A DNA stretch of 64,000 nt from Batillaria attramentaria (taxonomy: Eukaryota; Mollusca; Gastropoda; Batillariidae): assembly GCA_018292915.2 (NCBI GenBank), contig JACVVK020000013.1:3210001-3274000 (forward strand), read 5' to 3'. Within the stretch, counting starts at the first letter, position 1, and each line of letters starts with the position of its first letter. The position numbers were made by a program, and so were the translations under genes. This document shows positions 6,590 to 37,100 of this stretch, in pieces. The notes under the pieces were generated by a model, which saw nothing but the letters and a program-made list of their open reading frames with translations, was not told the DNA's origin and made no database searches.

Positions 6590-8679
6590 ATGGCTGTCAA
6601 CAAACTGTTGCTTCTGACAATCATCTGTGTCACTGGACAGTCCGTCTGGTCACACGACATTTTCAAAAACGATCTGAGTGAGTTGAACATTTCTTGTTCA
6701 TTAGAATATTGACTGCTGTTGTGGTTTAATAACGTCCACCCTATAATGTGTGTATGAGGAAGGAATCGGGATATTGAGAGAGAGAGAGAGCTGTTACCTG
6801 TGATCTGTATCCTGTGTTACAGGTTGGTTGGTTGGTTGGTTGGTTGGTTGGTTGGTTCTGCTGGCTGGCTGGTTGGTTGATTATTTGGCGTTTCATGCCA
6901 TAAGAGTAATTGGAGATTCATGCCATAAGAGTAATTAGAGATAGCCTTAATGGGCGGGTTATGGGCTGCGTCACCATTACCACGAACAGCCCAGCCGAAC
7001 ACCATAGAATTCAGACAGACTGATAGGTCAACCACATTATTATTATTATCATTATCATTATTATTTCTTGTACTATTATTATGGACGCAGGCTGGCTGGA
7101 AAAGTTCTGTAAATCGGACAGTGACTGCGAGGCGGACCTGGCTGTGTGTTTCAAGGGGAAATGCCTCTGTAAACCTGGTTATTACTACTCCCGTACCAGG
7201 AACATCTGTCTGGACAGTGAGTGTTCTCTCGTTTGTAAACCTGGTTATTACTACTCCCGTACCAGGAACATCTGTCTGGACAGTGAGTGTTCTCTCGTCT
7301 GTAAACCTGGTTATTACTACTCCCGTACCAGGAACATCTGTCTGGACAGTGAGTGTTCTCTCGTCTGTAAACCTGGTTATTACCACTCCCGTACCAGGAA
7401 CATCTGTCTGGACAGTGAGTGTTCTCTCGTTAGTCGTTACACCAAACAAGAGTGAGAAATAAAGATGGAAGTTACCCGTAAGCTGTTGTCGGTCGAGGTT
7501 TGCCTGGGTGGCAAACTTTCCCATAAGTACCGTCCAAGTTACCGCGGTATGATTTGCGAAAGCAGACAAAAATGGAGTTTTTTCGCAACAAAGCAGTTTT
7601 TCGCGAAAACGTCGATTTGGTCGCGAAAAAACGGCAAACTTTTTTTCCGCGAAAAAGCGGCAATTTCCTTTTATCGCGAAAACATTTGAAAGGGATTTTT
7701 TTTTCGTCGGAAAAACTGACTGTTTCGCGAAAAAACTGCCTTTTTTTCCGCGAAAAAACTGCCTTTTTTCGCGATAAAAAACCAGAGGTTTCCGCGAAAA
7801 AAGTCAGTTTTTCTGCAGAAAAGATTTTTCCGCGAAAAAAGTAAAAGCAGTTTTTTCGCGAAAAAGCACCCGTCAGTTTGTTCGCGAAAAAACAGGGCGG
7901 TGGTTTTTTTCGCGAAAAAACTGACGGCGTTTTTTCGCGAAAACCTGACTGAGTGGGCTATGATACACCCCTCGCCAGTGCAAACTTTCAGTGAGTTAAC
8001 TATGAGTGCTTTACGTCCGAAAATAGTAAGGAAACAGAGAGCGAAAGTGTGAGTTACGGCTTTCCATATCCAACTCAGTGGTTTATGAGTAAGCTTAATT
8101 ATGACTTTACGAGTTCACAAAAACACACTCCAGTTACGTCATCGGTCAGCGGCCTTGAAATGGAGATTTCTGACCTTCTGCTAAAAACGCTGAAGATGGA
8201 TGAAAAATGAGGTGACGTTGACTGCATTTGGAAAGACGACGCAAAGGACAGCAAAACAATACACCAAACTCTACCTGGAAACGTGTAAACAAGACACATA
8301 GCCACCAACATCGCCACAAAACATATATATTTTCTGGCATGTTTTGACCACCATCGACCATGTCGACCACCACCCTCGACCATATCGACCACCACCATCG
8401 ACCATATCGACCACCACCATCGACCATGTCGACCACCACCATCGACCATGTCGACCACCACCCTCGACCATATCGACCACCACCATCGACCATATCGACC
8501 ACCACCATCGACCATGTCGACCACCACCATCGACCATGTCGACCACCACCCTCGACCATATCGACCACCACCCTCGACCATATCGACCACCACCGTCGAC
8601 TATATCGACCACCACCCTCGACCTTGTCGACCTCTACGGCGACATTGTCGACCATCACGGTCAATGCAAACCCTAATAC

Positions 8680-8710
<31 letters not shown>

Positions 8711-9410
8711 GCACACACACACACACTTCTCTCTTAAGCATATACTCTGCAAGGCGCCTCGTATTTTAAGTTGTTTGGTTTATGTAGCTTGTTGAATGTA
8801 GCTTAGATAATGTAATGACTGCCAAGCGTCAGTGACGCTGTTCTGTCTTCTGTTTTGTGTCTCACAAAACCAATGGATCGGAACCACAGCTCAAATTGTT
8901 TAAACTACCAAACACCCCCACACACATCATCATCACACAAACAATCATTGTCCCCAAAAATTGCGGAACCCACGCACAATGCCCCGTTCTGGGATATATG
9001 GGAGAACATGAACTTGGCGCAAGAATCTGGCCACGCAGATAGTAAACTTTGAAAGTATTCTTTCATTGTTGAATTTACTGAGATGGCAATTTGTTGCAAC
9101 AGTGTCATCTTCACATTTAATGTTGTTCGTCAAACTCGTAAAACAAGACAGCACACAGTGGTTTTCTTTTCTCGGTGTCGGTGGAAATGGTCTATGTAAA
9201 AAGGTCTATCATAATGAGCGCTTGGATCAATAGATTGGATTTTTGAAGAGAAAAGAAAATGTTCGTGGTATAAACAGCTTACATGATTAGTTCTCGTGGT
9301 TTACGGCTAAAGACTAACTACTAAAAGCTACTCAAACAATCGAACCATCGAGGGGTTTGTCTTTCGCCGTAAACCACGAGAACTAATTATGTAAGCTCTA
9401 CACACACACG

Positions 9411-9465
<55 letters not shown>

Positions 9466-10705
9466 CGACGTGTGGCGTATGTCTATACTCTACACACGCC
9501 GTCACACTGAGCCGTAAACCATGCCTCGTAGAGTATTTTCACGGTAGCGCTATGTTGCCCGTTTGTTTCAGTGTGCGCCTATACAGATCTTCAGCCAACG
9601 TTTATCAAGTACCCTGGCTACGGCATTGAAAGGTTCAACATGAAAGCATCTGAGGCCACGCTGTTGCAGGTCACAGAATATAGCTTCCCCCCCCCCCCCC
9701 CTGTTCTTTGGATCTTACTTATGTCAGGCAGTGCACCTCCTTCCAAGAAATTTTCGGGGAGCCGGGGTGGTCGAATGGTAGAGCGTTGGACTTCTAATGC
9801 TCGGGTCGTGAGTTCGATCCCGGCTGGGGCCAAATATTTGTGCTGGCTTTTTCAGCGTTGCCCCGTCTTTGATATCACCCTAGGAGGTGGAAAAGGACGT
9901 TAAACACCCACCCACCCACCCCTTCCAATAAATTTTCACTACCAAAACATACAACTGGGTTCCAGACGCAAGACATGTCGACAAGCTGCATGCCAAAAAT
10001 GAAGCCTCGAAAGCGTAATTTTGATAGTTTACTGATGCAGCGTCCGTGCCAACCCCACATACTGAAATAGCTCATAAATAGTGAGACTTAGTAGGATTTC
10101 GTACGGAGGACTTCGTTGAGCAGCGTAACCCATTTACATGTAAATTAGGCTCACACGGCAGAGGCCGCGAGCTGCTAACGCGCTGCGATTAGCTAATGGT
10201 ACCCGTAGCGTGCCTAATTTACATGCAAGTGGGTTACGCTGCTCAGCGAAGTTCTCCGTACGAAGCCCTACTAATGCTGTAGACTGTAACTGTGATATTC
10301 CTGCCCCGCACATGCCCAAGGATATGCTTAAAAATAGGTCCCCATCAAATCAAGTCTGCTATGTATCAACACATCAAACATGCCTCTTTTCACCCAAACC
10401 CAACAACTGGGATCAAACGCACTTTCAACAACTGTACAAAAAAAATCCTAGAAGACAAGACAGATTCTCTGTAATAATTATGGCCCTCTTACTCCCTATC
10501 CCTACCCTGCCTCATTTGCATTATATTCTGTGTCCTACAGGACTGCATGGACCAGTGCATCGCCAACCCTCGCTGTCGTTCCATGGAGCACGTGACGGCC
10601 AACAATGGAACATGTCGTCTGCAGTCCGTGACCAAGCTCGGTGCTGCAGACTCAGTCTGGAGAGCCCATAGTGACTGGAACTATTATCAGAGAACCTGTT
10701 TGTAG
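6590..10705 (+). CDS. Gene A: secreted EB-like/PAN-domain protein, four exons
   Basis: Four exons join in frame: 6590-6677, 7091-7216, 9572-9669 and 10541-10705 (477 nt, 158 residues). The introns are GT-AG: exon 1 donor GTGAGT, exon 2 donor GTGAGT, acceptors GCAG, TTTCAG and CTACAG, phases 1, 1 and 0. Residues 1 to about 21 (MAVNKLLLLTIICVTGQSVW) form a signal peptide. Residues 36-69 have six cysteines in a C-x5-C-x6-C-x4-C-x1-C-x12-C pattern, an EB/EGF-like module. Residues 73-158 resemble a PAN/apple domain (YPGYGIERF, then DCMDQCIANPRC, ending YYQRTCL). The ATG has A at -3 and G at +4. A consensus acceptor (TTTTCAG) lies 13 bases upstream, implying an upstream non-coding exon, which I did not find for this copy. 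The protein is probably extracellular; PAN domains bind proteins or carbohydrates. The specific function is unknown. A 66-bp repeat spans the exon 2 donor, so longer isoforms are possible. Confidence 0.8.
7168..7431 (+). repeat. 66-bp minisatellite over the exon 2 donor of gene A, 4 units
   Basis: Units at 7168-7233, 7234-7299, 7300-7365 and 7366-7431. Each reads in frame as CKPGYYYSRTRNICLDSECSLV-type repeats of 22 residues. Each contains ACA|GTGAGT, a candidate donor, at 7217, 7283, 7349 and 7415. The fourth unit has TAC to CAC (Tyr to His). The array continues open to a stop in the intron at about 7453. Confidence 0.97.
7561..7945. repeat. Array of palindromic TTTTTCGCGAAAAA motifs
   Basis: More than a dozen variants of T-rich CGCG A-rich palindromes, spaced irregularly and often followed by ACTG, in intron 2 of gene A. 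Copies B and C lack this array. Confidence 0.85.
8345..8640. repeat. 22-bp minisatellite in intron 2 of gene A
   Basis: About 13 units of CGACCACCACCATCGACCAT-type sequence with mostly C/A and G/A variants. Several frames are open only because of the repeat. Confidence 0.95.
8679..8728. repeat. poly(C) plus (CA)n tract
   Basis: A C run of about 18 followed by CA repeats. The following 8729-9275 is plain intron with nothing recognised. Confidence 0.9.
9276..9397. mobile_element. Hairpin MITE-like element in intron 2 of gene A
   Basis: Arms of about 38 bp (AGCTTACATGATTAGTTCTC at the left end, with its near-perfect complement at the right end) surround a loop of about 45 bp. It is absent from the aligned intron 2 of genes B and C, so it was inserted or formed in copy A only. 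Confidence 0.7.
9402..9465. repeat. (CA)n microsatellite
   Basis: CA tract with a few CG interruptions, next to the hairpin element. Confidence 0.95.
9756..9920 (+). mobile_element. SINE family 1 in intron 3 of gene A
   Basis: The tRNA-like head starts GGGGAGCCGGGGTGGTCGAA, with anticodon-loop segment GACTTCTAATGC (Arg TCT-like) and B box GAGTTCGATCC. The body has TTGCCCCGTCTTTGATATCACC, then GGAAAAGGACGTTAAA and a CACC-rich tail. Direct repeats of 17 bp (CCTTCCAAGAAATTTTC at 9739-9755, CCTTCCAATAAATTTTC at 9921-9937) flank it. The same insertion is in B (25501) and C (37957), so it predates the gene triplication. Confidence 0.93.
10088..10274. mobile_element. Hairpin MITE in intron 3 of gene A
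   Basis: Arms of about 60 bp (TTAGTAGGATTTCGTACGGA at the left, complement at the right) with a short centre. Genes B and C have uninterrupted sequence here (AGCTCATAACTGTCACTGTG), so the element is private to A. Confidence 0.8.
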
Positions 10706-11124
10706 ATGGTCAGTCTCGGTGAGTCACTATGTGACAGCAGAGACCAATTACATCTCTATGTTTTTGTCTCAGAGCAGACCGACAGGTAGCGCTGAGCTGC
10801 AGAGACAACTTCTTCAAAAGATTTTTTTTCTATGTTTAAACAAGTAGTATTTCATCAACACAGTCACATAGAATTTTTCTTTCAAAACAATAACAACAAC
10901 AGCAACAGAAACACACCCAGAAAAAATTGTGTCCTTAACACTTCAGTTAACTATTTTTCAAGCCGATTGTGAACAGTTCAGTAAGCCAAGTGAATGGGTA
11001 ACCTTCGTTTTTTTTTTTTTTCTTTTTTCTTTTGAGTCTCTGCAATTTAGCGATCGGAGCTTTGAGTTATATATCATAAGTACCTGTCGTTAGCAAAGTA
11101 AACTGAATAATTCAAAGCATTCAA

Positions 11125-11191
<67 letters not shown>

Positions 11192-11488
11192 GCGCCCGCG
11201 TAAGACAATAACATTCGCCATAATACACAAAAACAAACCATGGACATTCACCGGACCAGGCACAGTCCACACTCATTCACAGACGTTCCTGAAAATTGCA
11301 AATGCACTTCAGCCGCACAACGATCTCAGTTACTCCCTCCTGACGTTACTGCACCAGCATGTTCTGGGATGGTCTAGAAATTATTTTGCATCGAAATGCA
11401 GTGGTTTTTCGCGATCTCTACAATACGTGGAAAGCGGGAATTTCTGTAGTGGGTTTCGTTTTTGCCACTGACTCACACTCAGAAGCAT

Positions 11489-11582
<94 letters not shown>

Positions 11583-13646
11583 CCTCGCGCGCGCGCGTCT
11601 ACTGAAGAGAGAGGGAGAGAGAGCGGGTCTCTTCTCCGATACCAGTAAGCAATCGTCTGTCAGTCAGGCCTGCGGGAAGTAACTCTGTCAAGGGGGCACG
11701 ACTTTGTTACAAGAATTCATTCACCCATGTAGAACCTCGCATACGTCAAAAAGTTAGTGACGTCAACCAGCTAGGCGAGCTAACACGACCTCATGTGTTT
11801 GGGGTTTTGCGAGCGCATGCTATTGTTAGAGGCACGGAAAGGGTTTTCAGTACTTTCTTTATGTCAGCTTGATGTCAGAGAGCTTGCGTTCGTGTGTTTT
11901 TTTGGTTCTTTTGTTGTTGTTGTTGTTGTTGTTGTTTGTCTTTGCTTGTTCCCGGTCAATTAGTAGTGGCTGATAATAGCCGGAGGTCAGTTGTGTTTTT
12001 GCCCGGAGTTTGGGATCAAATTCCTCTCCGTGGCCTTAACCGATTATAATACTGATTAGTTCAGTGAATCCAGCAAAGTTTTATCTTTTAGAAACATATT
12101 TTGTTTTATTTGCCAGTTCAAGTGGAAGTAGTTCAATTCACGTTTTTATGCTTGATCGCCTTCAAAAATCCGTCGGGTCGGACCCTTCAAAAATTCGTCG
12201 TAAATCAGCCACAGCGCCTATTTAGTCCAAAGTTATATCCAATAAGAGCCCTTTCCCCAAAGTTTCAAATGCCGCAACCCCGATCAATTTTGGCCCAGTG
12301 GATCGGCTGTAATCCTTGGTCAAGCACAGTGTAACAAACACAGATTTCACTGCAACGGGTGCATTTCCTTTGTTTTTGCTTGCGAGCGGTCGTTGCTTTC
12401 TTTGCGGCTCGCGCTGCGCGCACATAAGGCCGGGTCCCGGGGGACGCGCTGTTTGCACTCGACCATTGAATGCGCCACCCGTGACCAGCGGACTCGTTCA
12501 GTCCGGACTTCGCCATCACACCACGCAGCCTTTGCACTGTTTTTTCCCGGATCAATAAACAACACATGTCATAGTGACCCCTGCGTTGTGTGCTCCCTGC
12601 CTGCTTGACCGGACCCCCGACACCCGGTTACATTAATAAAATGGGTTTTGCTATGTCCATCATTACTACTTTGATCAGAGATATGGTGACAGCTGACTTC
12701 TATCTGACATCGTCTTAAATTTATCTCTGGTTGTGATCAAAGGGTGCACGTTTCCTTTCATCGTGTTGAGTAAGCTATAAAGTAGAACACATGACACTAA
12801 TTCTGAAGATTAAAATCCTGTGTTCGTGTTATTGATCCTGCCGTGACAAAATTAATAACCTGTGATTTTATACGTGTATCTCTCGTCATTAAAGGGCAAG
12901 GCAAGTCAAATGCAATGTTGGGTTTAGGGGATAGACAGTGATGTCCTAGACGGCTGCAGCCCAAAAGATTTGAACACGAATACACCATTCAGCATTTATC
13001 ACACCAAACGTCAGCCGAAATGCGATGCCATCGAGGCTGCCATGTTGATCCTAGCAGTGGCGTCACTCCACCACTCAGCAGCAGGTGAGATTCTGACACT
13101 GTGCGTGCAGGTGTGCCTGCCACACGTTTTAGACGTGCTATTTCTGGCTCGTATACACACTTTGCTTATTTCCCGAAAGCTAGAATTGATTTGGGGATAG
13201 TTCCCTATAATTTCGAGCCAGAATGTTCTGAGGAAGAGCTCAGTAAGGGGTCGGGCAGAAAACAGTGGGGACGATGGGGAAGAGCCGATTGATGAGAACG
13301 AGTGCAGTTGTGGGAGATGCGTGTTTGACAAGTGAAGCAGCAACATCGTTCGCAAAAGCGCCAGTGAAACAATCCGGGGCAAAATGATCTCCACAAACGA
13401 GGTCTCGATTGTTCCAGGCGTATTCTTGCACTCGGCGGGGCAAGGGAGCATTCTTCAAGGTCTCCAACCATTTCGCACACGGCACAACCTCCGTTTTTCC
13501 TTTGATTTGTTTAGATTCGGAAATTCAAAAAAAAAAAGCTTTTGTGGCTTCCATCTGCATTCTTACACGTGCCCTGTTTGCTGAAACAACCAAACGCTTT
13601 GCACTGTGGCATCTCGAACACAAAATAATACTCTGGAACAACCCGC
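10706..13646. repeat. Intergenic unit D, copy 1 (segmental duplication)
   Basis: Nearly identical to 26239-29158, with offsets of about 15520-15538 that vary only through microsatellite length. It contains TG tracts at 11129-11189 and 11491-11580, a (GTT)n run near 11911-11936, an unrecognised ORF-bearing stretch at 12265-12567, and the THAP remnant at its right end. No host gene is recognised. Confidence 0.9.
13240..13612 (-). pseudogene. THAP-domain remnant, copy 1
   Basis: On the minus strand an ATG at 13612 opens MPQCKAFGCFSKQG (C-x4-C). The second half, CAKWLETLKNA...CGDHFAPDCF...VPTVF, supplies the C-x2-H ligands and the AVPTM-like box, so the whole THAP domain is recognisable. It is broken by a frameshift at the AKW junction (extra bases within TGCCGTGTGCG) and by an 11-A homopolymer near 13528. 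Copies 2 and 3 have 9 and 8 A in that run. The downstream transposase is not visible. Confidence 0.75.
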
Positions 13647-13676
13647 TCAACCCGGCTCCCACACACCGTGGCACTG

Positions 13677-13677
<1 letters not shown>

Positions 13678-13729
<52 letters not shown>

Positions 13730-13771
13730 CGCACGCACGCACACACACACACACACACACATACACACACC
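13678..13771. repeat. (CA)n microsatellite
   Basis: CA tract with CG-containing interruptions, immediately at the left edge of the 2.9-kb insert. Confidence 0.95.
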
Positions 13772-14157
13772 GAGTATACATAGGTAAAACCTGAGTTTTT
13801 GACACTCAGATATTTGCTTTACTACAAACTCTATAGACATGACCTGTCCTGAGTCAGATGAATCGGACTTAAACTCAGGCATATGTCCTGTCTTGATCCT
13901 TGCTGGACATGCATGGACACAGCTGCTGGACGGAACAGTCAGCCGGTCAGACGATAATGGTCAAGGACCGACGACGCCATGATCCCGCCAGAACCATTAA
14001 TTTTCGACGCGCCCAGCGAAATTCTTTTTTCCCACGTGAGTTCATGGAAGCACCGTCAGTTCACGCTGGGTTCATCGCTGAGTTGACCGACCGCTCTGTG
14101 AGACAGATTACATCGTGGAAACTGCTCTATCAATTGTTTCGTCAGTATAGTACACAG

Positions 14158-14256
14158 GGGTGAGCGGTGGTCTAATAGGTAGCGCGTCGGACTCAGCCGC
14201 TGTGATTATGTGATACATGTACCAGTTTTTCCTGGCTACCGGGCTGTTCACCGGGT
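14158..14256 (+). mobile_element. SINE family 2, 3'-truncated head
   Basis: GGTGAGCGGTGGTCTAATAG and AGCGCGTCGGACTCAGCCGC match the heads of the longer copies at 23651 and 36291. It ends where dispersed repeat E begins. Confidence 0.75.
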
Positions 14257-14620
14257 GTTATTTCACGAGTTGTCTCCCTTGCCGCAACAAGCACGCATTT
14301 TTCGTGGCAGAGCACAAAGCTGCCCCGAAAAAAGCATGCATGCTGCGGGTCTGTTTTTGCACGGGGGACAACTCATGTAGGCAATAATATCTAAAAAGAG
14401 GTTGAAAGTGTACTGTGCTCACTGATGAACGCGACAGTTTCCACCGATTCTGTGCACACTGTGAAATAACACGGGGACCTCAAAGCTGTTCCCAACTGTC
14501 CACTTTCCTTGTCACCGAGTATTTATGTTTTTTTTCCTTCTTATGTATCACTTAGCTCGCCTCGGTCTCGGTTAGCCCGGTCTGGGCCCGTTTGTAAAAC
14601 TTGAGGTTAATTTAACCCAC
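14257..14620. repeat. Dispersed repeat E
   Basis: Contains ACGAGTTGTCTCCCTTGCCG and CAACAAGCACGCATTTTTCG, shared with 45355-45440 and with the SINE-split copies in intron 2 of genes B (24655-25219) and C. The right part carries the complement of ...CTAACCGAGACCGAGCCGAG. Probably a DNA element with inverted internal similarity; class unknown. Confidence 0.6.
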
Positions 14621-14887
14621 GGCTACGGGCCTAACCCAGACTAGGAAAAGAGAAACCCCAAAACAAAATTAAACAAGGAGGAACGGCCCCGTCCTACAAA
14701 GTTGTTTCTCCAAACTTCATTTTATTTTGTCTGTTTTGTTGTTATTGTTGCCGGTTCTCCCCTCTCCAAGTTCTACCAATGACACTAGATCCTCTACGAC
14801 CTCGACCGATTAGCCACGTGACTGGGGGTGGGGCCGGGTGGGGGAAGAAGGGGGGGGGGGGAGAGAGAGAGAGGCAGAGAGAGAGGG

Positions 14888-15062
14888 TGGGTGGGTGGGT
14901 GTTTAGGAGTTTAACGTCCTTTTCCCCCACATAAGGGTGATATCAAACACGGGGCAAGGAGAAAAAGGCCAGCACAAATATTTGGCCCCAGCGGCCGGGA
15001 TTCGAACTCTCGGCCCAAGCATTGAAAGTCCAACGCTCTACCATTCGGCCACCCTGGCTCCC

Positions 15063-15063: not shown

Positions 15064-15105
<42 letters not shown>

Positions 15106-21762: not shown

Positions 21763-24700
21763 ATGGCTGTCAACAAACTGTTGCTTCTGACACTCATCTG
21801 TGTCACTGGACAGTCCGTCTGGTCATACAACACTTTCAAAAACGATTTGAGTGAGTTGAACATTTCTTGTTCATTAGAATATTGACTGCTGTTGTGGTTT
21901 AATAACGTCCACCCTATAATGTGTGTATGAGGAAGGAATCGGGATATTGAGAGAGAGAGAGAGAGAGAGAGAGAGCTGTTACCTGTGATCTGTATCCTGT
22001 GTTAGGTCTGCCCCTCCATTTCAATTGTCACTCTTAGTGCTTGTTTAACATAGTTAATGTCAGGCAATGCCAATGCCTATTTCTTAAATTGTGTTTTAGC
22101 CAATGACTGAGTGTGTGCGTGTGTAATGATGTACATACATGTATGTTGGTTTTGTATTTCCATGGTATGTTTGTGTATAGATGTGTTTTTATTAAGAGGA
22201 GCAAAACAAATTCTTCTTAATTGTAACTAAGAAGCGAATAAATCTATCTTATCTTATCTTATAACCACACCAGTGTGTGGAGCATAAAAGATACTCCATG
22301 GTTGACTTGGCATTTCTGCAAGACGGGGACATTTGAAAACTTCCATACAATTTGACATCATTCCCTACCCTTCTTCGCCCCCTCCACTGGATACCTTTAA
22401 CCCTTTCACTGCCAGACGCATTTCGGTTCACTCACGGATAACATCTCTTCGCGTCACTCTGCTGTAAACAGGAATCAAAACCTGTACTGTATCAAAGAGC
22501 TTTGTTTCCCCCTAACTACTGGAAAATACAGATTTAACATTTTTAACTAATGTAACAGGTGACCTACTGTTTCCAGTCGCGGACTACTGCGACAGAGGCA
22601 GTGAAAGGGTTAATGTGGGTATCCAGCTCTACTTAACCCATTAATGCCCACCGTCCCATTTTTGGGACGCAACATATTTCAATCGCGCTATCTAAAGTGT
22701 TTGTGTCAATGTGACTCAGCTGCCTTGTGTTAATCAGGGGACACACCCTGCATCCAAATATTGTTTTTGTTTGAGTACTCTCCATTTACACCAGCAGTGG
22801 AAGCTGCCATTTGCCGATTAGTTGTACGTCACATTTTATCGTCTAGATGAAACATTTCAGAGTTTCAATCAAAATTAGACCAACACATGTTAATTGTAGA
22901 CCATTATGCATAATATCAACCATGTCGCACTTAGAAAAAAAAATTGGGCATTAATGGGTTAATCTCGAAACTGGCGAGATATATAGGAACATAGGGTCTC
23001 GAGTTTTGACGTTACATTACGGGCACACTCATTGATAGATGTTGGTTGTGTCTTTGGTTGGTTGGTTGGTTGGTTGGTTCTGCCGGCTGGCTGGTTGGTT
23101 GATTATTTGACGTTTCATGCCATAAGAGTGATTGGACTGACAGGTCATCCACATTATTATCATTATCATTATTATTTCTTGTACTATTATTATGGACGCA
23201 GGCTGGCTGGAAAAGTTCTGTAAATCGGACAGTGACTGCGATGCGGACCTGGCTGTGTGTTTCAAGGGGAAATGTCTCTGTAAACCTGGTTATTACTACT
23301 CCCGTACCAGGAACATCTGTCTGGACAGTGAGTGTTCTCTCGTTTGTAAACCTGGTTATTACTACTCCCGTACCAGGAACATCTGTCTGGACAGTGAGTG
23401 TTCTCTCGTTTGTAAACCTGGTTATTACTACTCCCGTACCAGGAACATCTGTCTGGACAGTGAGTGTTCTCTCGTTAGTCGTTACACCAAACAAGAGTGA
23501 GAAATAAAGATGGAAGTTACCCGTGAGCTGTTGTCGGTTGAGGTTTGCCTGGGTGGCAAACTTTCCCATAAGTACCGTCCAAGTTACCGCGGCCTCGAGA
23601 AGAATCATACCCGTAGTTTTTTTCTGTTTTGTTGTTGTTTTAAACCGGAGGGTGAGCGGTGGTCTAATAGGTAGCGCGTCGGATTTAGCCGCTGCGCTAC
23701 TGAACGGCCGTCACCAATGTCATGGCGAGGAAGCGTGGGTTCGAGCCCAGGTCGAGCTTGTGATATGCGATACCGGTTTTTCCTGGCTGCCAGGCTGCTC
23801 ATCGGGGGTTTCACTCCGGGTTATCCGGCTTTCCTCCCCCCAGCAAAATTGCTATATTGTTAAAAAAAAATTGTAAAAAAAAAAGAAAGGATAGGTATTT
23901 GGTGGCGCTGCACCGCGGCGACGCGCTTCCCCCGGGGTAAGCAGCCCGAATTTCCCGAAAGGGACAATAAAGTAGTTAAAAAAAAATCAAGAAGGGTCAC
24001 AATGATATCACGAGGTCAGCTGCCACGCCATGCCGCCCAGTACACGGCGACTTGAAACAAATCCTCTCAAAGGTTTCTACGCAGGTCCACCCGACCGTAT
24101 AGCACGTAGGTGACTCTTCTCTTTATTTCACTCTTGCCGGCGTCAGGTAATCTGGTAGTGGCATCTTAATGGGCTTCAGACAGATCATGTCACCAAACTC
24201 CGAAATTTCTTAAAACGGGCCAATTCCATGTTTGCTGAGTCAACTTATGTTTTGGAACAGTTCCGCTCGTGAGTGCGCCTGTACGTTCCAAATACTCTAT
24301 CTTGATGATTAGTACAGCTCTTAATGCGATACAATGTTGTTTACACTTTGCGCGAGCGGTCAAACATTCAAATTGTAAGACTGTTGTTACACCACTGGAG
24401 CGCTGAGTGTCGTGGTTTTCGCATCATCGAGTACGCTTCTGCTGGCTCAGTGCCACCGTTACAGACGCTGTAACTGTCCAGGTGTCTAAGTGGTGTGATG
24501 AGAGATGCCACGAAAACAGCTCAGAACGATCTGCGAGCATAAAAACTGTAGCATCATTCGACTGTGCTGACAGGAAACAATTTTCGTTTTACAAATTCTA
24601 CTGGCGGAAGTGCATTCTACGCTCGTGGCCCATATACAATTCTGTTCCGGGACCGTCGCTTCTCTAGGTCCCTGCGACGACGTCCAGATCGGGCTAACCG

Positions 24701-26238
24701 ACACCGAGGGTGGGTGGGTGTTTGGGAGTTTAACGTCCTTTTCCACCACATAGGGTGATATCAAAGACGGGACAACGATGAAAAAGCCAGCACAAATATT
24801 TGGCCCCAGCCGGGATCGAACTTACGACCCGAGCATTAGAAGTCCAACGCTCTACCATTCGACCACCCCGGCTCCCCCTAACCGACACCGAGCCGAGCTA
24901 AGTGATACCTAAGAAGGCAAATACAAAAATACTAGGTGATAAGGATAGTGGACAGTTGCGAACACCTTTGAGGTCCCCGTGTTCTTTCGGGGAGCCGGGT
25001 GGCCGAATGGTAGAGCGTTGGACATCTAATGCTCGGGTCGTGAGTTCGTATCCCGGCTGGGGTCAAATATTTGTGCTGGCTTTTTCATCGTTGCCCCGTC
25101 TTTGATATCACCCGTATATGGTGGAAAAGGACGTTAAACCACCAAACACCCTCCCCACCCACCCCGTGTTACTTCACACGAGTTGTCTCCCTCGCCGCAA
25201 CAAGCACGCATTTTTCGAGCGTGTGGCGTATGTCTATACTCCACACACGCCGTCACACTGAGCCGTAAACCATGCCTCGTAGAGTATTTTCACGGTAGCG
25301 CTATGTTGCCCGTTTGTTTCAGTGTGCGCCTATACAGATCTCCAGCCAACGTTCATCAAGTACCCTGGCTACGCCATTGACGGGTTCAACATGAAATCAT
25401 CTGAGGTCACGTTGTTGCAGGTCACAGAATATAGCTTTTTTTCCCCTGTTCTTTGGATCTTACTTATGTCAGGCACTGCACCTCCTCCCAAGAAATTTTC
25501 GGGGAGCCGGGGTAGAGCGTTGGACTTCTAATGCTCGGGGCGTGAGTTCGATCCCGGCTGGGGCCAAATATTTGTGCTGGCTTTTTCATCGTTGCCCCGT
25601 CCTTGATATCACCCTAGGTGGTGGAAAAGGACGTTAAACACCCACCCACCCACCCCTTCCAATAAATTTTCACTACCAAAACATACAACTGGGTTCCAGA
25701 CGCAAGACATGTCGACAAGCTGCATGCCAAAAATGAAGCCTCGAAAGCGTAATTTTGATAGTTTACTGATGCAGCGTCCGTGCCAACCCCACATACTGAA
25801 ATAGCTCATAACTGTCACTGTGATATTCCTGCCCCGCACATGCCCAAGGATATGCTTAAAAATAGGTCCCCATCAAATCAAGTCTGCTATGTATCAGCAC
25901 ATCAAACATGCCTCTTTTCACCCAAACCCAACAACTGGGATCAAACGCAATTTCAACAACTGTACAAAAACAAAAAAATCCTAGAAGACAAGACAGATTC
26001 TCTGTAATAATGATGACCCTCTTACTCCCTATCCCTACCCTGCCTCATTTGCATTGTATTCTGTGTCCTACAGGACTGCATGGACCAGTGCATCGCCAAC
26101 CCTCGCTGTCGTTCCATGGAGCACGTGACGACCAACAAAGGAGCATGTCGTCTGCAGCCCGTGACCAAGCTCGGTGCTGCAGACTCTGTCTGGAGAGCCC
26201 ATAGTGACTGGAACTATTATCAGAGAACCTGTTTGTAG
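21763..26238 (+). CDS. Gene B: secreted EB-like/PAN-domain protein, four exons
   Basis: Exons 21763-21850, 23202-23327, 25323-25420 and 26074-26238 join to 477 nt (158 residues) with the same phases as gene A. The signal peptide is MAVNKLLLLTLICVTGQSVW. The EB-like module has the same six cysteines (SDCDADLAV in place of SDCEADLAV). The PAN-like half reads YPGYAIDGFNMKSSEVTLLQ and DCMDQCIANPRCRSMEHVTT, ending YYQRTCL. Several replacements separate it from A, but only two residues (Asn/Ser and His/Tyr in exon 4) and the repeat number separate it from C. Intron 1 carries two piggyBac-type MITEs. Intron 2 holds SINEs and block P. A TATA promoter and exon 0 lie about 4 kb upstream. Function unknown, probably extracellular binding. 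Confidence 0.82.
22014..22262 (+). repeat. Retroposon-type 3' end with (TATCT)n tail in intron 1 of gene B
   Basis: About 250 bp ending GCGAATAAATCTATCTTATC with pentanucleotide repeats, present in B and C (34379-34627) but absent from A. Probably a 5'-truncated retroposon; family not identified. Confidence 0.5.
22401..22609. mobile_element. piggyBac-type MITE 1 in intron 1 of gene B
   Basis: 209 bp with 13-bp ends CCCTTTCACTGCC / GGCAGTGAAAGGG and TTAA on both sides (22397-22400, 22610-22613), the piggyBac target signature. Intron 1 of gene A lacks it. Confidence 0.9.
22637..22958. mobile_element. piggyBac-type MITE 2 in intron 1 of gene B
   Basis: 322 bp with ends CCCATTAATGCCCA / TGGGCATTAATGGG and TTAA on both sides (22633-22636, 22959-22962). 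It lies 27 bases from MITE 1 and is absent from gene A. Confidence 0.9.
23279..23476 (+). repeat. 66-bp minisatellite over the exon 2 donor of gene B, 3 units
   Basis: Units at 23279-23344, 23345-23410 and 23411-23476; donors ACA|GTGAGT at 23328, 23394 and 23460. In frame, each unit adds 22 residues with three cysteines. Confidence 0.97.
23651..23975 (+). mobile_element. SINE family 2
   Basis: tRNA-like head (GGTGAGCGGTGGTCTAATAG; B box GGTTCGAGCCC), body TACCGGTTTTTCCTGGCTGC, and a 3' part GGTGGCGCTGCACCGCGGCG ending GAATTTCCCGAAAGGGACAA-TAAAG plus poly(A). The tail hairpin resembles the LINE-type end at 51700. A second copy is at 36291. Confidence 0.9.
24212..24549 (+). repeat. Block P copy in intron 2 of gene B
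   Basis: A diverged copy of the block found upstream of all three genes, starting AAAACGGGCCAATTCC and ending at TGCGAGCATAAAAACTG. Confidence 0.75.
24709..24877 (-). mobile_element. SINE family 1, private to copy B
   Basis: A 169-bp minus-strand SINE flanked by perfect 15-bp direct repeats CTAACCGACACCGAG (24694-24708, 24878-24892). The aligned sequence in copy C (about 37334-37348) has one copy of the target and no SINE. The insertion therefore postdates the B/C duplication. Confidence 0.95.
24989..25164 (+). mobile_element. SINE family 1
   Basis: Inserted into repeat E with flanks CCGTGTTCTTTC and CCGTGTTACTTC. The same insertion is in copy C at 37444. Head GGGGAGCCGGGTGGCCGAAT, anticodon segment GACATCTAATGC. 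Confidence 0.92.
25501..25654 (+). mobile_element. SINE family 1 in intron 3 of gene B, A box deleted
   Basis: Orthologous to 9756-9920 but missing about 11 bases in the D-arm/A-box region (GGGGAGCCGGGGTAGAGCGT). This would remove internal promoter function. Confidence 0.92.
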
Positions 26239-29158: not shown

Positions 29159-29161
29159 CCC

Positions 29162-29344
29162 GGGGAGCCGGGGTGGTCGAATGGTAGAGCGTTGGACTTC
29201 TAATGCTCGGGTCGTGAGTTCGATCCCGGCTGGGACCAAATATTTGTGCTGGCTTTTTCATCGTTGCCCCGTCTTTGTGCTGGCTTTTTCATCGTTGCCC
29301 CGTGGTGGAAAAGGACGTTAAACCCCCAAACACCCACCCACCCA
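29162..29344 (+). mobile_element. SINE family 1 with internal duplication
   Basis: Flanked by perfect 13-bp repeats TCTGGAACAACCC (29149-29161, 29345-29357). The A/B equivalent (16978-16990) is an empty site. The body repeats GTGCTGGCTTTTTCATCGTT in tandem. Confidence 0.96.
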
Positions 29345-29359
29345 TCTGGAACAACCCGC

Positions 29360-29958
29360 TCAAAGCGGGCACTGCGGACAGTGGTGGTGGAGTGACGTCA
29401 CCGTCAGCGCCTTTCCCGTCTCATTCGCGAAAGAGTGCGGCAACATGGCGCAGCCCAGGAACCGAAAGCAGAGGGTGTTTTCAATGATCCTTATTAGTAA
29501 TGACTTGGATCTAACCATCTCGCTGTTAGTGCAAAACAAAACTGTTTACTTCCAACGGTTTTTAAAAAAGCTTCATTGCCTGTTTGTCTACCAAGCCCTT
29601 GCAGAACAGCAGAGACTACCTGTGCACTTATTCGCCTTTTGAAAACTCGCATTTCGATTTGTTGTGCAAAGCTGGCGCACAGATACTGCGTGCGAGAAAA
29701 CATAATGATTTCCCCGGCTGTGTCACTTTCATTGATTGAAGTAAACTGCCTATCACCGACTGTAACACAATTCTTTCTACTCATTTAAACAACCACGTCA
29801 TGAATGGTTTGTATTGCGTTCTGTGATTGGTCACTTTGCTGTGGCCACAGTCGTCCCATCTTTCAGGATGCATGCGCCAACTTCGGAAGAAAAGTTATTG
29901 GAGAGATGCTAACGAATGAAATGTCAGGCTTGTTAATTAACGTGGCACTAAGCCTGCA
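29360..29958. other. Upstream region of gene C promoter
   Basis: Near-identical to 16991-17586. It has the same unrecognised short ORFs and an inverted CCAAT motif near 29825. Confidence 0.5.
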
Positions 29959-30044
29959 TATATAAGCCGCGGGGGTTGGGGAGTGGAGTCAAGCTTCTCC
30001 TGACACACAGAGGAAGTTGTCATCATTCTCCAGTGACAGCTCAG
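29959..30044 (+). promoter_or_regulatory. TATA promoter and probable non-coding exon 0 of gene C
   Basis: TATATAA at 29959-29965 and donor CTCAG|GTAAGC with GT at 30045, as for gene B. Confidence 0.55.
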
Positions 30045-30253
30045 GTAAGCATGTCTTTACAATTTGTTGTTTATGTTGCTGCGCTTACAACAACAAAACA
30101 AACAACAAAACACAGGTCAGTCTCCTATTCAGTCCAAGAAAGTTCGTCTGTCACTTTTTCACATCAATTCAATTCAAAATACATTGATTACCAGTCTGTA
30201 GTGGAAGTGTCCGAATGTCAACTGGGTTTCCATGTGTCCACACTTTTGATATT

Positions 30254-30463
30254 TCAAGTCCCTTTGGTCTCCTTAAAGTCCTCGAACACGAGGACGAGCT
30301 TACCCTGCACCATTGTAACACTGTACTCACCATAAACTTCTCTTGTACGTTCTGGCTTAAAATTATCGTCGTAAGCAATCATCCACACTGAAACTTTCGC
30401 TGGGTTCATCACATCAGCAACGCTCAAAATCACATCAACGGCGACTTTATTTATTGTCAACAC
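30254..30463 (-). CDS. Unrecognised open exon-like segment (copy 2)
   Basis: Identical in protein to 17882-18091. Kept open, but its context gives no start or splice sites. Confidence 0.25.
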   Translation of the reverse strand: MLTINKVAVDVILSVADVMNPAKVSVWMIAYDDNFKPERTREVYGEYSVTMVQGKLVLVFEDFKETKGT

Positions 30464-30688
30464 TTTCGTTCTCTCTCCATCAAACAGACGTTAAATGTCC
30501 AGATCTGTCGAAAGGGGAATTTATAGAAAAAGCATTGTTCTCCATTGCAAAAGAGCCTCTTGCCTGATTCTCGCAAACAAGGCCGCAAACCGAAGTACTG
30601 TCACATAACCCGTCAGCTGTGATGAAGATGTGTGAGAGGGTGGTTCTGAATCGCTTGACAGTTCTTCTGTCTGACTTCCTTCATCTCT

Positions 30689-31687
30689 TGCAGTTTGCCT
30701 GTTGTCCTAAATGCTACATACTCGCACCTAGACTGTTCTGCAAACTACATCAGAATCATGTTCTATGATTTCAGCGATGCCTATAATACAATACAACCCC
30801 GTATTCTTGTTCAGAAGTTGCAGCAAATGTCTCTCTCGCCTTCAATCATAGCCTGGATTTTTGACGACCTCACACACAGACCCCAGTACGTGAAACTTGA
30901 CACTCTAACGTCAGGCACAGTTTTCTCAGTCTCTACATACAAACGTAGCGGGCCTCAAGGAACCGTCCTATAACCATTCCTACGCACCGTGTTCACACTC
31001 TCATCAGTCTTGTCCATTACCATTCCTATACACTGTGTACACTGCTGACTGTAGACACTCTCAAGACTCTTGTCCATTAGTTAAGTTTGCCGACGACACC
31101 AGCATGGTTTGTAAAATCACAAACAATGATGACCGCCACTGCAGAGCAGAAACAGATGTTTGTCAGCTGGAGTGAAGATAACCATTTGTATTTAAATGTG
31201 TCAAAAACAAGAGAGATGATAATTAATTTTGTACGCAGTAGCGACACTCCAAACCGTGTGCGAATCAACGGAAAAGTAGTGGAGAGGGTTGATTCGTACA
31301 GGTATCTCGGTGTCGTACTTGACAACAAACTGAACTGGCAAGAAAACATTAACTCTTTGGTTACAAAAGTCCAGCCTCGGCTGTACTGCCTCAGAAAACT
31401 AAAATCTTTCGATGTCCGTTGTGGTATTTTACAAATCTTCTTCCACTATTAGCAGCGTGTTGACTTTTGGGGCAGTGTGTTGAGGAGGGGACATAACTTC
31501 GTTAAAGTTGATTTATCGTGTTATCGTCAATGTTCCCGGATTGAATCTGCAGTTTGTGTTTGCTCGGTTCCCAGAGTACACCTGCTGTTTGTGTCAAACT
31601 GGACGTTCCCTTATCACATCAAAAATTTGTGTCCAAAATACACCCCCTCTGTATATCTGAAAGTATTTGACTTACAAGAAAGATCGA
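30689..31687 (+). pseudogene. LINE reverse-transcriptase fragment, copy 2
   Basis: Duplicate of 18317-19320 with FADD at 31086-31097. A small deletion at about 31433-31438 further damages the end relative to copy 1. Confidence 0.88.
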
Positions 31688-31689
31688 TA

Positions 31690-33301
31690 TAAACTCAAGC
31701 CAAAAAGTTAAGCAACCCTGCTTTGAAATCCAAAACATAATCAAACACACACACACAAATTTCATTCTTCCTCAGTATCGATAAGACGAGTCTCTGTCAT
31801 ATACTGAATATAAACACTAACTGAAATGTCAAACCAAAGCACCATATTTCATCCCGCAAAGATGGCGACTAAGTTCCAGCATTTCATTTCTTCGAGAACA
31901 GTTTCACGTTGAAAGCCCACTGTGAACAAAATACAGATGCGATGCCCATTTTGTCACCAAGAAAAAGGAAAAAGAATCCTTGTCTTTCAGTTTCACACAC
32001 ATTTCGTGATTTAAGTTGTGTTATGTGCTGTCAGTAATGGGTGTAACCTCCCCTTGCCTGAATCACCTCTCGGCACCTCCTTGGCACGCTGCGGACAAGC
32101 CGTCTGAGCTTTTGCTGATCCAGATTGTTCCACTCCTCTTGAACAGCTCTGGTGAGTTCAGCCACGTTGTTTGGAGGTGGTTGTCTGTCCCTGACAGCTC
32201 TCTGTAGCATGTCCCACACATGTTCAGTAACATTGAGATCTGGTGACCGTGCTGGCCAGTCTTCAGTGACGATGTTGGTCGTATTCTTGTATGCCTGGAT
32301 GATTCTTGCACGATGGCTGGTGACGTTGTCATCCACCAGAATAAAGTTTTCCACAGGGTGCTGCTGCTTGAAGGGCAAGATGACGTCACGGAGAATGTCA
32401 TCTCTGTACTTGACAGCAGTCATGTTCCCATCAATGACCTCAAGGGCGATCTTATGATCGTAGGTGAAGCCTGCCCACACCATGATGGACTGGCGAGCCC
32501 TTGCCGGAATTTGTCTCACACAGTCATCATTGAATGCTTGTCCACGGGAGTGGCGAACTCGTACGCGGCCATAGTTTGAATACAGGCAGAATCTCTTTTC
32601 ATCAGTCCACACCAGCCTCCTCAAACGTCAAATGTTCCAGTGTACGTGGACCCTGGCATACTGGAGTCTCGCCTGGCGATGTTGCGGGGTCAGCTCGGGC
32701 TTTTTTCGTGGACGGCGTGAGGGTAAGCCTGCAGCGAGAAGACGGTTGTTGATGGTCTGTCTGGACACCCTGCCAATGACGTGTTGAAGGTCGTCTCTAA
32801 TATGGCGAGCAGGCTTGAATCCGTTGGTTCTGGCATGGTGCACTATCAGTCTGTCTTCTCTGGCCGTTGTGACTCTTGGGCGTCCGCTTCTTGGGTGGTC
32901 TTGGACGTTTCCTGTCTGTCTGTGTTTGGTGACAAGACGACTGACGTCCCCCTTTGTCGTTCAGAAACGAGCAACGATAGCTGACGATGACTGCCCTGCC
33001 TGAGCAGCGCCCACTATTTGCCACTTCTCAGCATCACTTTTTCTTCTAGTTGCCATGTCTGACGTGTTCAGTAAGCGGCCTTAAACGTATGCGTCAAACT
33101 TGACTTTTCACAAAGTGACCCCTGGCAGTGCTCTGAGCGTTACTCACAGCGTAAATTGCACGTGGATGTGGTGAAAATGCCCACGCAGCACGGTACATGG
33201 ATAAGCTAAAATTGTATCTATCTACAAAATCCGTGCGAATCAGCAAAAGACATATCTGCATTGTTTTGCAAAAGGTTGCTTAACTTTTTGGCTCGAGTTT
33301 A
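31690..33301 (-). mobile_element. Tc1/mariner transposon, copy 2
   Basis: The same TIRs and TA flanks (31688-31689, 33302-33303). It arose by segmental duplication, not by new transposition, because the flanking LINE is shared. Confidence 0.93.
32031..33056 (-). pseudogene. Tc1-type transposase, copy 2
   Basis: The same frame, DD34E motifs and two TGA stops (codons 32 and 143) as copy 1. One visible replacement: SNYGRV in place of SNDGRV. Confidence 0.93.
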
Positions 33302-33391
33302 TATTAATATGGCTTAAGGTACCCTGTCTCAGGAAATACAACGCAAATTTGAAAAGACGCATAATTTAAAGCATGTTCCTTTATTACAACA

Positions 33392-33664
33392 GATATTGAT
33401 GATTAATACAACTCGTAATGCGATACAATATTGTTTACACTTTACGTGCACAAATAAATTCATCGACTGTTGTTACACTACTGGAGCGCTCAGTGTGGTT
33501 GGCGCGTCATCGAGTACGCTTCTGTTGGCTCAGTGCCAGCATTACAGATGCTGTCACTATACAGGTGTTTAAGTGGTGTGATGATAGATACCACGAAAAC
33601 AGCTCAGAACGATCTGTGAGCATACAAACTGGTAGCGTTAGCCCTTTCAAATACTTCCACACAT
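33392..33664 (+). repeat. Block P copy upstream of gene C
   Basis: Matches 21025-21296 almost exactly. Confidence 0.75.
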
Positions 33665-33665
33665 A

Positions 33666-34087
33666 CAGCCTTCACAAAAAGTTAGGACCACTTGCAAATA
33701 TCATTCAACTTTTGTCGTGGTGGCATGCTGGTGTAGTGCTGAACATCGCTGAAACGGCGGCTTATATAGGCAAACAAAGAAGCACAGTTCATAAACAGGG
33801 ATGCATTCTTTGACCTGCATCTCATTTTTGCCGTGCAGAAAGCCCCAGGTATCGCTCACTGAACACTGAAACTCGGTCTAGTTTTGCCGAAATTGCAGAT
33901 TTTCAAACCCGCCAAGCATACTGTGTGACGCGCACGTGCCATCCACACAGTAATCGCCATGTTCACTAATTTCCCCTTAACCTTGCTACCGAATTTTACG
34001 GGAAAAATCTTATTTGTTTATTTTTTTCTGATTTATTGAAACTGTCACCCATTATGTTGACTGGTCCTTAACTTTTTGTGAAGACTG
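33666..34087. mobile_element. TA-flanked MITE, copy 2
   Basis: The same 422-bp element as 21299-21720, TA flanks at 33664-33665 and 34088-34089. Confidence 0.95.
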
Positions 34088-34129
34088 TAACATTTAGGCC
34101 TTGGTTCAGTTTCAGGTTATTTGAAGACC

Positions 34130-37100
34130 ATGGCTGTCAACAAACTGTTGCTTCTGACACTCATCTGTGTCACTGGACAGTCCGTCTGGTCATACAACAC
34201 TTTCAAAAACGATTTGAGTGAGTTGAACATTTCTTGTTCATTAGAATATTGACTGCTGTTGTGGTTTAATAACGTCCACCCTATAATGTGTGTATGAGGA
34301 AGGAATCGGGATATTGAGAGAGAGAGAGAGAGAGAGAGAGCTGTTACCTGTGATCTGTATCCTGTGTTAGGTCTGCCCCTCCATTTCAATTGTCACTCTT
34401 AGTGCTTGTTTAACATAGTTAATGTCAGGCAATGCCAATGCCTATTTCTTAAATTGTGTTTTAGCCAATGACTGAGTGTGTGCGTGTGTAATGATGTACA
34501 TACATGTATGTTGGTTTTGTATTTCCATGGTATGTTTGTGTATAGATGTGTTTTTATTAAGAGGAGCAAAACAAATTCTTCTTAATTGTAACTAAGAAGC
34601 GAATAAATCTATCTTATCTTATCTTATAACCACACCAGTGTGTGGAGCATAAAAGATACTCCATGGTTGACTTGGCATTTCTGCAAGACGGGGACATTTG
34701 AAAACTTCCATACAATTTGACATCATTCCCTACCCTTCTTCGCCCCCTCCACTGGATACCTTTAACCCTTTCACTGCCAGACGCATTTCGGTTCACTCAC
34801 GGATAACATCTCTTCGCGTCACTCTGCTGTAAACAGGAATCAAAACCTGTACTGTATCAAAGAGCTTTGTTTCCCCCTAACTACTGGAAAATACAGATTT
34901 AACATTTTTAACTAATGTAACAGGTGACCTACTGTTTCCAGTCGCGGACTACTGCGACAGAGGCAGTGAAAGGGTTAATGTGGGTATCCAGCTCTACTTA
35001 ACCCATTAATGCCCACCGTCCCATTTTTGGGACGCAACATATTTCAATCGCGCTATCTAAAGTGTTTGTGTCAATGTGACTCAGCTGCCTTGTGTTAATC
35101 AGGGGACACACCCTGCATCCAAATATTGTTTTTGTTTGAGTACTCTCCATTTACACCAGCAGTGGAAGCTGCCATTTGCCGATTAGTTGTACGTCACATT
35201 TTATCGTCTAGATGAAACATTTCAGAGTTTCAATCAAAATTAGACCAACACATGTTAATTGTAGACCATTATGCATAATATCAACTATGTCGCACTTAGA
35301 AAAAAAAATTGGGCATTAATGGGTTAATCTCGAAACTGGCGAGATATATAGGAACATAGGGTCTCGAGTTTTGACGTTACATTACGGGCACACTCATTGA
35401 TAGATGTTGGTTGTGTCTTTGGTTGGTTGGTTGGTTGGTTGGTTCTGCCGGCTGGCTGGTTGGTTGATTATTTGACGTTTCATGCCATAAGAGTGATTGG
35501 ACTGACAGGTCATCCACATTATTATCATTATCATTATTATTTCTTGTACTATTATTATGGACGCAGGCTGGCTGGAAAAGTTCTGTAAATCGGACAGTGA
35601 CTGCGATGCGGACCTGGCTGTGTGTTTCAAGGGGAAATGTCTCTGTAAACCTGGTTATTACTACTCCCGTACCAGGAACATCTGTCTGGACAGTGAGTGT
35701 TCTCTCGTTTGTAAACCTGGTTATTACTACTCCCGTACCAGGAACATCTGTCTGGACAGTGAGTGTTCTCTCGTTTGTAAACCTGGTTATTACTACTCCC
35801 GTACCAGGAACATCTGTCTGGACAGTGAGTGTTCTCTCGTTTGTAAACCTGGTTATTACTACTCCCGTACCAGGAACATCTGCCTGGACAGTGCGTGTTC
35901 TCTCGTTTGTAAACCTGGTTATTACTACTCCCGTACCAGGAACATCTGCCTGGACAGTGCGTGTTCTCTCGTTTGTAAACCTGGTTATTACTACTCCCGT
36001 ACCAGGAACATCTGCCTGGACAGTGCGTGTTCTCTCGTTTGTAAACCTGGTTATTACTACTCCCGTACCAGGAACATCTGTCTGGACAGTGAGTGTTCTC
36101 TCGTTACACCAAACAAGAGTGAGAAATAAAGATGGAAGTTACCCGTGAGCTGTTGTCGGTCGAGGTTTGCCTGGGTGGCAAACTTTCCCATAAGTACCGT
36201 CCAAGTTACCGCGGCCTCGGGGAAGCCCGAGAAGTGGGTTAATCATACCCGTAGTTTTTTTTTCTGTTTTGTTGTTGTTTTAAACCGGAGGGTGAGCGGT
36301 GGTCTAATAGGTAGCGCGTCGGATTTAGCCGCTGCGCTACTGATCGGCCGTTACCGATGTCATGGCGAGGAAGCGTGGGTTCGAGCCCAGGTCGAGCTTG
36401 TGATATGTGATACCGGTTTTTCCTGGCTGCCAGGCTGCTCATCGGGGGTTTCTCTCCGGGTTATCCGGCTTTCCTCCCCCAGCAAAATTGCTATATTGTT
36501 AAAAAAAAATGTAAAAAAAAAGAAAGGATAGGTATTGGGTGGCGCTGCACCGCGGCGACGCGCTTCCCCCGGGGGAAGCAGCCCGAATTTCCCGAAAGGG
36601 ACAATAAAGTAGTAAAAAAAAAAAATCAAGAAGGGTCACAATGATATCACGAGGTCAGCTGCCACGCCATGCCGCCTAGTACACGGCGACTTGAAACAAA
36701 TCCTCTCCAGGGTTTCTACGTAGGTCCACCCGACCGTATAGCACGTAGGTGACTCTTCTCTTTATTTCACTCTTGCCGGCGTCAGGTAATCTGGCAGTGG
36801 CATCTTAATGGGCTTCAGACAGATCATGTCACCAAACTCCGAAATTTCTTAAAACGGGCTAATTCCATCTTTGCTGAGTCAACTTATGTTTTGGAACAGT
36901 TTCGCTCGTGAGTGCGCCTGTACGTTCCAAATACTCTATCTGGATGATTAGTACAGCTCTGAATGCGATACAATGTTGTTTACACTTCGCGCGAGCGGTC
37001 GAACATTCAAATTGTACGACTGTTGTTACACCACTGGAGCGCTGAGTGTCGTGGTCGCCGCATCATCGAGTACGCTTCTGCTGGCTCAGTGCCACCGTTA

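What the first reader, a model, noticed from the sequence alone, without database searches (positions are those of the whole stretch)
7168..36105. Minisatellite placed exactly on an exon/donor boundary, 4, 3 and 7 units
The 66-bp unit (a multiple of three) contains the last codons of exon 2, the donor site and the start of the intron. Every unit is therefore a possible exon end, and choosing a later donor adds 22 in-frame residues with three cysteines per unit. Unit number differs between paralogues. This is a plausible mechanism for generating length variants of an extracellular protein without changing the reading frame.
Basis: partly seen in the sequence, partly recalled or inferred. Interest (0 to 1): 0.9.

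Follow-up and report, generated by a model that had tools for sequence, protein, structure and literature searches.

The report
Repeat multiplies an exon's splice donor
In three neighbouring predicted snail genes, a 66-base repeat sits on the end of an exon and repeats its splice signal 4, 3 and 7 times (three of these altered), so the cell would be able to lengthen the predicted secreted protein in 22-residue steps, although the first signal is likely the one mostly used.

Summary
In detail: 66-bp arrays of 4, 3 and 7 units lie at 7168-7431, 23279-23476 and 35644-36105, in three tandem predicted EB-PAN genes of (almost certainly) Batillaria attramentaria. Each unit holds 49 bp of exon end plus 17 bp of intron start. 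All 14 unit donors splice in frame to one acceptor, 22 residues and 3 Cys apart; 11 are GTGAGT, units 4-6 of copy 3 GTGCGT. The donor place is confirmed independently: the 27 best of 111 EB-exon matches elsewhere in the genome have a GT exactly at the place of the first donor, and none shows a second unit. The 10 database relatives that contain the EB part carry a single unit. So the array is derived and the one-unit protein ancestral. Human splicing data for exons between long introns predict that the first donor dominates, though downstream donors win in most human cases overall. The length-variant mechanism is possible but unproven; frame preservation is not improbable by chance. Human IFI6 (6-16) is a close precedent. 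The array also marks a sharp change in identity between copies 2 and 3. A stop and AATAAA behind each array open a truncated-isoform rival. No transcript data could be consulted.

The parts
6590..6677 (+). copy 1 exon 1 (CDS; MAVNKLLLL..., signal-peptide-like; donor TGA|GTGAGT)
   Evidence: secretion inferred from the hydrophobic start, no predictor run
7091..7216 (+). copy 1 exon 2, first-donor form (126 bp, phase 1-1, EB-like module)
   Evidence: donor place matched by 27 of 27 fetched paralogous exons
7168..7431 (+). copy 1 minisatellite, 4 units of 66 bp; donors after 7216, 7282, 7348, 7414, each ACA|GTGAGT
7432..7463 (+). in-frame tail and stop, then AATAAA at 7458-7463 (possible intronic poly(A) signal)
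9572..9669 (+). copy 1 exon 3 (start of PAN domain)
10541..10705 (+). copy 1 exon 4 (rest of PAN domain, stop)
21763..21850 (+). copy 2 exon 1
23202..23327 (+). copy 2 exon 2, first-donor form
23279..23476 (+). copy 2 minisatellite, 3 identical units; donors after 23327, 23393, 23459; AATAAA at 23503
25323..25420 (+). copy 2 exon 3
26074..26238 (+). copy 2 exon 4
34130..34217 (+). copy 3 exon 1
35567..35692 (+). copy 3 exon 2, first-donor form
35644..36105 (+). copy 3 minisatellite, 7 units; GTGAGT after 35692, 35758, 35824, 36088; GTGCGT after 35890, 35956, 36022; AATAAA at 36125
37778..37875 (+). copy 3 exon 3
   Evidence: annotated protein P0001 uses this exon with a donor 15 nt earlier
38538..38702 (+). 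copy 3 exon 4

Best explanation
A 66-bp minisatellite repeats the EB-exon splice donor 4, 3 and 7 times (3 of 14 altered) in three tandem predicted EB-PAN snail genes; the first donor is predicted to make the main mRNA, and later donors would likely add 22 in-frame residues each in minor isoforms. Shown by sequence: the first donor is where 27 of 27 fetched paralogous EB exons have their GT, the one-unit protein is the form seen in the relatives that contain the EB part, and all 14 donors are phase-compatible with the common acceptor. Inferred: a tandem duplication captured the last 49 bp of the exon and 17 bp of the intron, which happened to be open and a multiple of three, and the array then grew and shrank by unequal exchange, partly between the tandem genes. 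Inferred: because exon 2 lies between introns of 413 bp to 2.4 kb, exon definition favours the first donor, as in human minigenes; downstream donors would act as in-frame alternates, as in human IFI6. Predicted by counting: isoforms with an odd number of extra units have an odd number of cysteines, so they might dimerise or be unstable.
For: Donor place: 27 of 27 fetched paralogous exons have GT at the homologous phase-1 position and 0 of 27 show a second unit within 1.4 kb. Genome-wide, 125 EB-exon matches at E up to 10 (lower bound; the weak tail may be chance): 14 belong to the window, and of the other 111 none is a late partial match of the kind the extra units give. The window donor ACA|GTGAGT scores above 20 of 27 family donors. 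P0004-P0013: 10 of 10 have one GYYY unit, 8 of 10 the C-x3-C link that the CLD|M-C junction makes. Introns flanking exon 2: 413, 1351, 1349 bp upstream; 2355, 1995, 2085 bp downstream of the first donor. In human minigenes with two identical strong donors 52 nt apart and 365-nt introns the upstream donor was chosen exclusively (PMC9225289, passages). IFI6 uses two downstream repeat units as extra donors, giving three mRNAs (PMC4526556, passage).
Against: No transcript was seen. The same paper reports the older intron-centric rule (Reed and Maniatis) and finds the downstream donor preferred in about 60% (2,497 of 4,171) of human alternative-donor events overall; the upstream preference is for exon-defined events. 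Human data may not hold for snails. Minor isoforms may not exist: no database protein found carries two units (limited length ranges, and only the 7995 candidates sharing most words were scored), though repeats were masked before gene prediction in the published annotation (PMC10382545, passages; that the BaRGS names come from it is not shown).
Confidence: 0.47

Rival explanations
1. Only the first donor is ever used; the array is a neutral intronic minisatellite that began on the exon boundary and has no effect on the mRNA.
For: Exon-definition minigenes used the upstream donor exclusively. Single-unit form in 10 of 10 relatives with the EB part. Open frame is not improbable by chance: 18 of 27 paralogues are open through 17 intron bases. 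Unit variants are few: 2 synonymous, 2 not. Other minisatellites abound in the window.
Against: Eleven of 14 units keep a donor that scores above 20 of 27 family donors; such duplicated donors are used in IFI6.
Confidence: 0.28
2. The whole array is normally coding: the last, intron-proximal donor is the main one, so the three paralogues make proteins with 4, 3 and 7 units.
For: Intron-centric proximity rule, and about 60% downstream preference over all human alternative-donor events (both in PMC9225289). All 14 units are open and in frame. Internal units 4-6 of copy 3 have a weaker donor but an intact frame.
Against: Exon-definition minigene result; no multi-unit relative among 10; copy 1's longest form would have an odd number of cysteines once its hydrophobic start is removed (21); exon 2 of copy 3 would be 522 bp.
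Confidence: 0.14
3. The array is read through into an in-frame stop and a poly(A) signal, giving a short EB-plus-repeats protein without PAN by intronic polyadenylation.
For: In all three copies the frame stops at the eighth codon behind the array and AATAAA starts 20-27 bp from it; about 0.02 AATAAA are expected per 30 nt in this window. A GU-rich stretch follows (by eye).
Against: The three copies are most likely one event by descent. The tail differs between copies (SRYTKQE in 1 and 2, TPNKSEK in 3, a 7-bp indel), so it is not conserved as protein. Donors upstream usually protect introns from premature polyadenylation (recalled, U1 telescripting; from no call).
Confidence: 0.1

Closest known systems
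Human IFI6 (6-16, G1P3) exon 2 minisatellite (Turri, Cuin and Porter 1995)
   Same: A minisatellite supplies several splice donors in one transcript (title seen in reference lists); two downstream repeat units serve as donors and three mRNAs result (one sentence in PMC4526556).
   Different: IFI6 unit is 12 bp, 4 residues (recalled; the paper is not held). Here 66 bp, 22 residues, half an EB module with 3 Cys, in three tandem paralogues with different unit numbers. Donor use is not shown here.
Pfam EB module (PF01683) plus PAN_1 (PF00024) proteins of caenogastropods
   Same: Same order and C-x3-C link in Littorina, Babylonia, Nucella, Pomacea and another Batillaria gene by alignment. Pfam at E up to 0.01 sees PAN_1 in 6 and EB in 7 of the 10, both in 4.
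   Different: Of the sequences examined (27 genomic exons, 10 proteins) none but the window genes has repeated EB ends.
Ordinary alternative 5' splice sites
   Same: Competing donors for one acceptor, in frame.
   Different: Here made by a tandem repeat, so the number of donors can change by unequal exchange (inferred).

Membership tests
Minisatellite with multiple splice donors (IFI6 type) | Repeat unit spans exon end and intron start and contains a donor | tested here: met
   consensus GTGAGT in 11 of 14 units, GTGCGT in 3
Minisatellite with multiple splice donors (IFI6 type) | Every donor joins in frame to the same acceptor | tested here: met
   14 of 14
Minisatellite with multiple splice donors (IFI6 type) | More than one donor used in mRNA | not testable with these tools
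   no transcripts held; no multi-unit protein found in the ranges searched
EB module (PF01683) | Reaches the curated score | tested here: inconclusive
   copy 1 spliced protein: 22.8 bits against 24.3; relatives P0006, P0007 and P0010 exceed it, P0012 equals it
PAN_1 (PF00024) | Reaches the curated score | tested here: met
   30.6 bits against 21.4
Gastropod EB-PAN gene family | EB exon ends at phase 1 after the last Cys plus two codons and links to PAN by C-x3-C | tested here: met
   donor place in 27 of 27 fetched genomic exons; link in 8 of 10 proteins

The most novel reading that the evidence does not exclude
The donor array is an evolvable length dial: in one gene cluster, unequal exchange inside the array changes the number of U1 sites, and with it both the ladder of cysteine-rich EB-PAN isoforms and the balance between them and a truncated EB-repeat protein ended at the AATAAA behind the array.
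Probability: 0.12. Interest if true: 0.78.

Novelty: new member of a known kind. Interest (0 to 1): 0.42.

Why it matters
It offers a natural experiment on splice-site choice: three closely similar genes in one cluster carry 4, 3 and 7 copies of the same donor (3 altered) before the same acceptor, with many single-donor paralogues as control. RNA-seq could say whether first, last or mixed donors are used, and whether a minisatellite can tune protein length without touching the frame. It would extend the IFI6 case from short steps in one human gene to 22-residue cysteine-rich steps in a multigene family.

Tried and rejected
Selection on the frame: rejected as evidence, since there are only 4 variable positions in 14 units and open frames are common by chance. 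Fold of the repeats: AlphaFold2 on exon 2 plus array of copy 1 (alignment of the three window copies) gave mean pLDDT 56, pTM 0.34, so no fold search was run. Exon 3 end: the annotated protein P0001 uses GAG|GTCACG, 15 nt upstream of my CAG|GTCACA; relative P0005 has the same spacing as my longer form (by eye), so I kept the longer. One exchange at the array as the origin of copy 2: not fully supported; copy 2 is like copy 3 upstream of the array (9 mismatches in 6299 aligned sites) and like copy 1 downstream of exon 4 (3 in 2419 over 11200-13645), but between array and exon 4 it matches neither at that level (against copy 3: 34 in 1214, then 16 in 1563). tRNA genes: none found. Earthworm metallothionein minisatellites (PMC12783039, passages): within intron 1, no donor in the unit mentioned. 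EB/PAN literature for gastropods: nothing useful in the listing. My note gave the AATAAA distance as 27-32 nt; the coordinates give 20-27.
Full report
Where it is. The window is G000:C13:3210001-3274000 of a 715,342,989-base, 863-contig assembly, the size and scaffold number published for Batillaria attramentaria (863 scaffolds, 0.715 Gb; PMC10382545, passages). A B. attramentaria protein, BaRGS_00003885 (P0001), sits on a contig of the same length as C13 (3,950,708) and is reproduced letter for letter from copy 3. The organism is therefore inferred with high confidence.

The observation. Three arrays of a 66-bp unit, 4, 3 and 7 copies, are present at the stated places. All 14 units are exactly 66 bp; 4 positions vary, and units 4-6 of copy 3 share two changes, one of which turns GTGAGT into GTGCGT. 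Each array lies in a predicted four-exon gene with a hydrophobic start, an EB-like module (22.8 bits, just under the Pfam cut-off of 24.3) and a PAN domain (30.6 bits, cut-off 21.4) (copy 1; for all three). A unit is the last 49 bp of exon 2 and the first 17 bp of intron 2. Splicing any of the 14 unit donors to exon 3 keeps the frame: from 158 aa up to 224, 202 and 290 aa in copies 1, 2 and 3, in steps of 22 residues and 3 cysteines.

Independent support for the exon end. An EB-exon search of the whole genome gave 125 matches at E up to 10; 14 are the full exons and extra units of the window, 111 lie elsewhere, and none of the 111 starts as late in the query (residue 24) as the extra units do (only the best candidates are scored, so counts are lower bounds, and the weakest matches may be chance). 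In the 27 best of those 111, fetched with flanks, 27 of 27 have GT at the same phase-1 place, and 0 of 27 show another unit within 1.4 kb downstream. The other 84 were not examined. So the first donor is the ancestral one and the array looks private to this cluster. A donor table made from those 27 places the window's ACA|GTGAGT above 20 of 27 and the altered ACA|GTGCGT above 7 of 27: weakened, not clearly dead.

Relatives. The 290-aa query found 10 proteins, from Littorina (4), Babylonia, Nucella, Pomacea, another Batillaria gene and two unnamed records (only the 7995 candidates sharing most words were scored). All 10 have a single GYYY unit; 8 of 10 have the C-x3-C link from EB to the next Cys that the CLD|M-C junction makes (P0010 has four residues, P0012 none). 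The eleventh relative, P0001, has no EB part. A search with exon 1-2 alone found no candidate. The one-unit protein is thus the conserved form.

Which donor. No transcript was available. Published evidence conflicts: the intron-centric rule favours the downstream donor, which is also preferred in about 60% (2,497 of 4,171) of human alternative-donor events; but exon-defined exons lean to the upstream donor, and minigenes with two identical strong donors and 365-nt introns used the upstream one exclusively (PMC9225289, passages). With both donors weakened, shorter exons kept the upstream donor and longer ones were skipped (same passages). Here the flanking introns are 413 to 1351 bp and 1995 to 2355 bp, so the exon-defined case applies, if snails behave like human cells. 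I therefore predict a main first-donor product with later donors minor, as reported for human IFI6, where two downstream repeat units serve as donors and three mRNAs result (PMC4526556, one passage; the 1995 paper itself was not held).

How strong is the frame argument. Not strong: 18 of 27 paralogues are also open through 17 intron bases, about one period in three is a multiple of three (11 of 32 other TRF rows), and the three arrays most likely share one origin. The one-unit form has 13 cysteines, one of them in the hydrophobic start, leaving 12; each unit adds 3, so every second isoform has an odd number.

The array as a boundary. Copies 2 and 3 differ at 9 of 6299 aligned sites upstream of the array and at 34 of 1214 in the 1.2 kb behind it (Fisher p about 1e-19); further on the difference falls to 16 of 1563. 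The last upstream difference is at 22921 and the first behind the array is at its very end (7-bp indel at 23477). Sites are not independent, so the p-value is only a guide. This fits exchange between paralogues ending in or next to the array, and could explain the changing unit number; assembly error in the arrays is not excluded.

A rival product. Behind each array the frame stops at the eighth codon and AATAAA starts 20 to 27 bp from the array. A truncated EB-repeat protein by intronic polyadenylation is possible and untested.

Novelty. Searches for minisatellites with splice donors (listings) brought up IFI6 as the one precedent I noticed; the library holds only open-licence papers.

Verdict. 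A real, derived donor-multiplying minisatellite, a new member of a known kind. The length-variant mechanism is plausible as a minor mode and directly testable.

Noticed in passing
36669-36744 (copy 3), 24030 (copy 2): The one protein found for the cluster in the database (BaRGS_00003885) starts inside intron 2 of copy 3 and lacks the EB module and the array; it is reproduced exactly from the DNA. Copy 2 has the same ATGCCGCC start at 24030, copy 1 does not.
   Followed up: partly
24251-24552 and 36890-37191: Intron 2 of copies 2 and 3 holds a second, about 82% identical copy of the region upstream of exon 1 of copy 1 (6243-6519), a possible internal promoter.
   Followed up: no
genome G000, contigs C19, C21, C517, C82, C180 and others: EB exons form a large family in this snail: 111 matches outside the window at E up to 10, many in clusters.
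   Followed up: partly
16973-39028: Copy 2 resembles copy 3 upstream of the array (99.9%) and copy 1 downstream of exon 4 (99.9% over 11200-13645), with a mosaic middle, as after unequal exchange plus conversion.
   Followed up: partly
9752-9922, 24708-24877, 24985-25156, 37953-38123, 47761-47935 and other places: A dispersed element of about 170 bp on both strands, SINE-like by a tRNA-like box (by eye; ARAGORN finds no tRNA).
   Followed up: no
8347-8632: A second minisatellite (22 bp, 13 copies) inside intron 2 of copy 1.
   Followed up: no
50527-51469: A 135-bp unit repeated 7 times, 98% matches.
   Followed up: no
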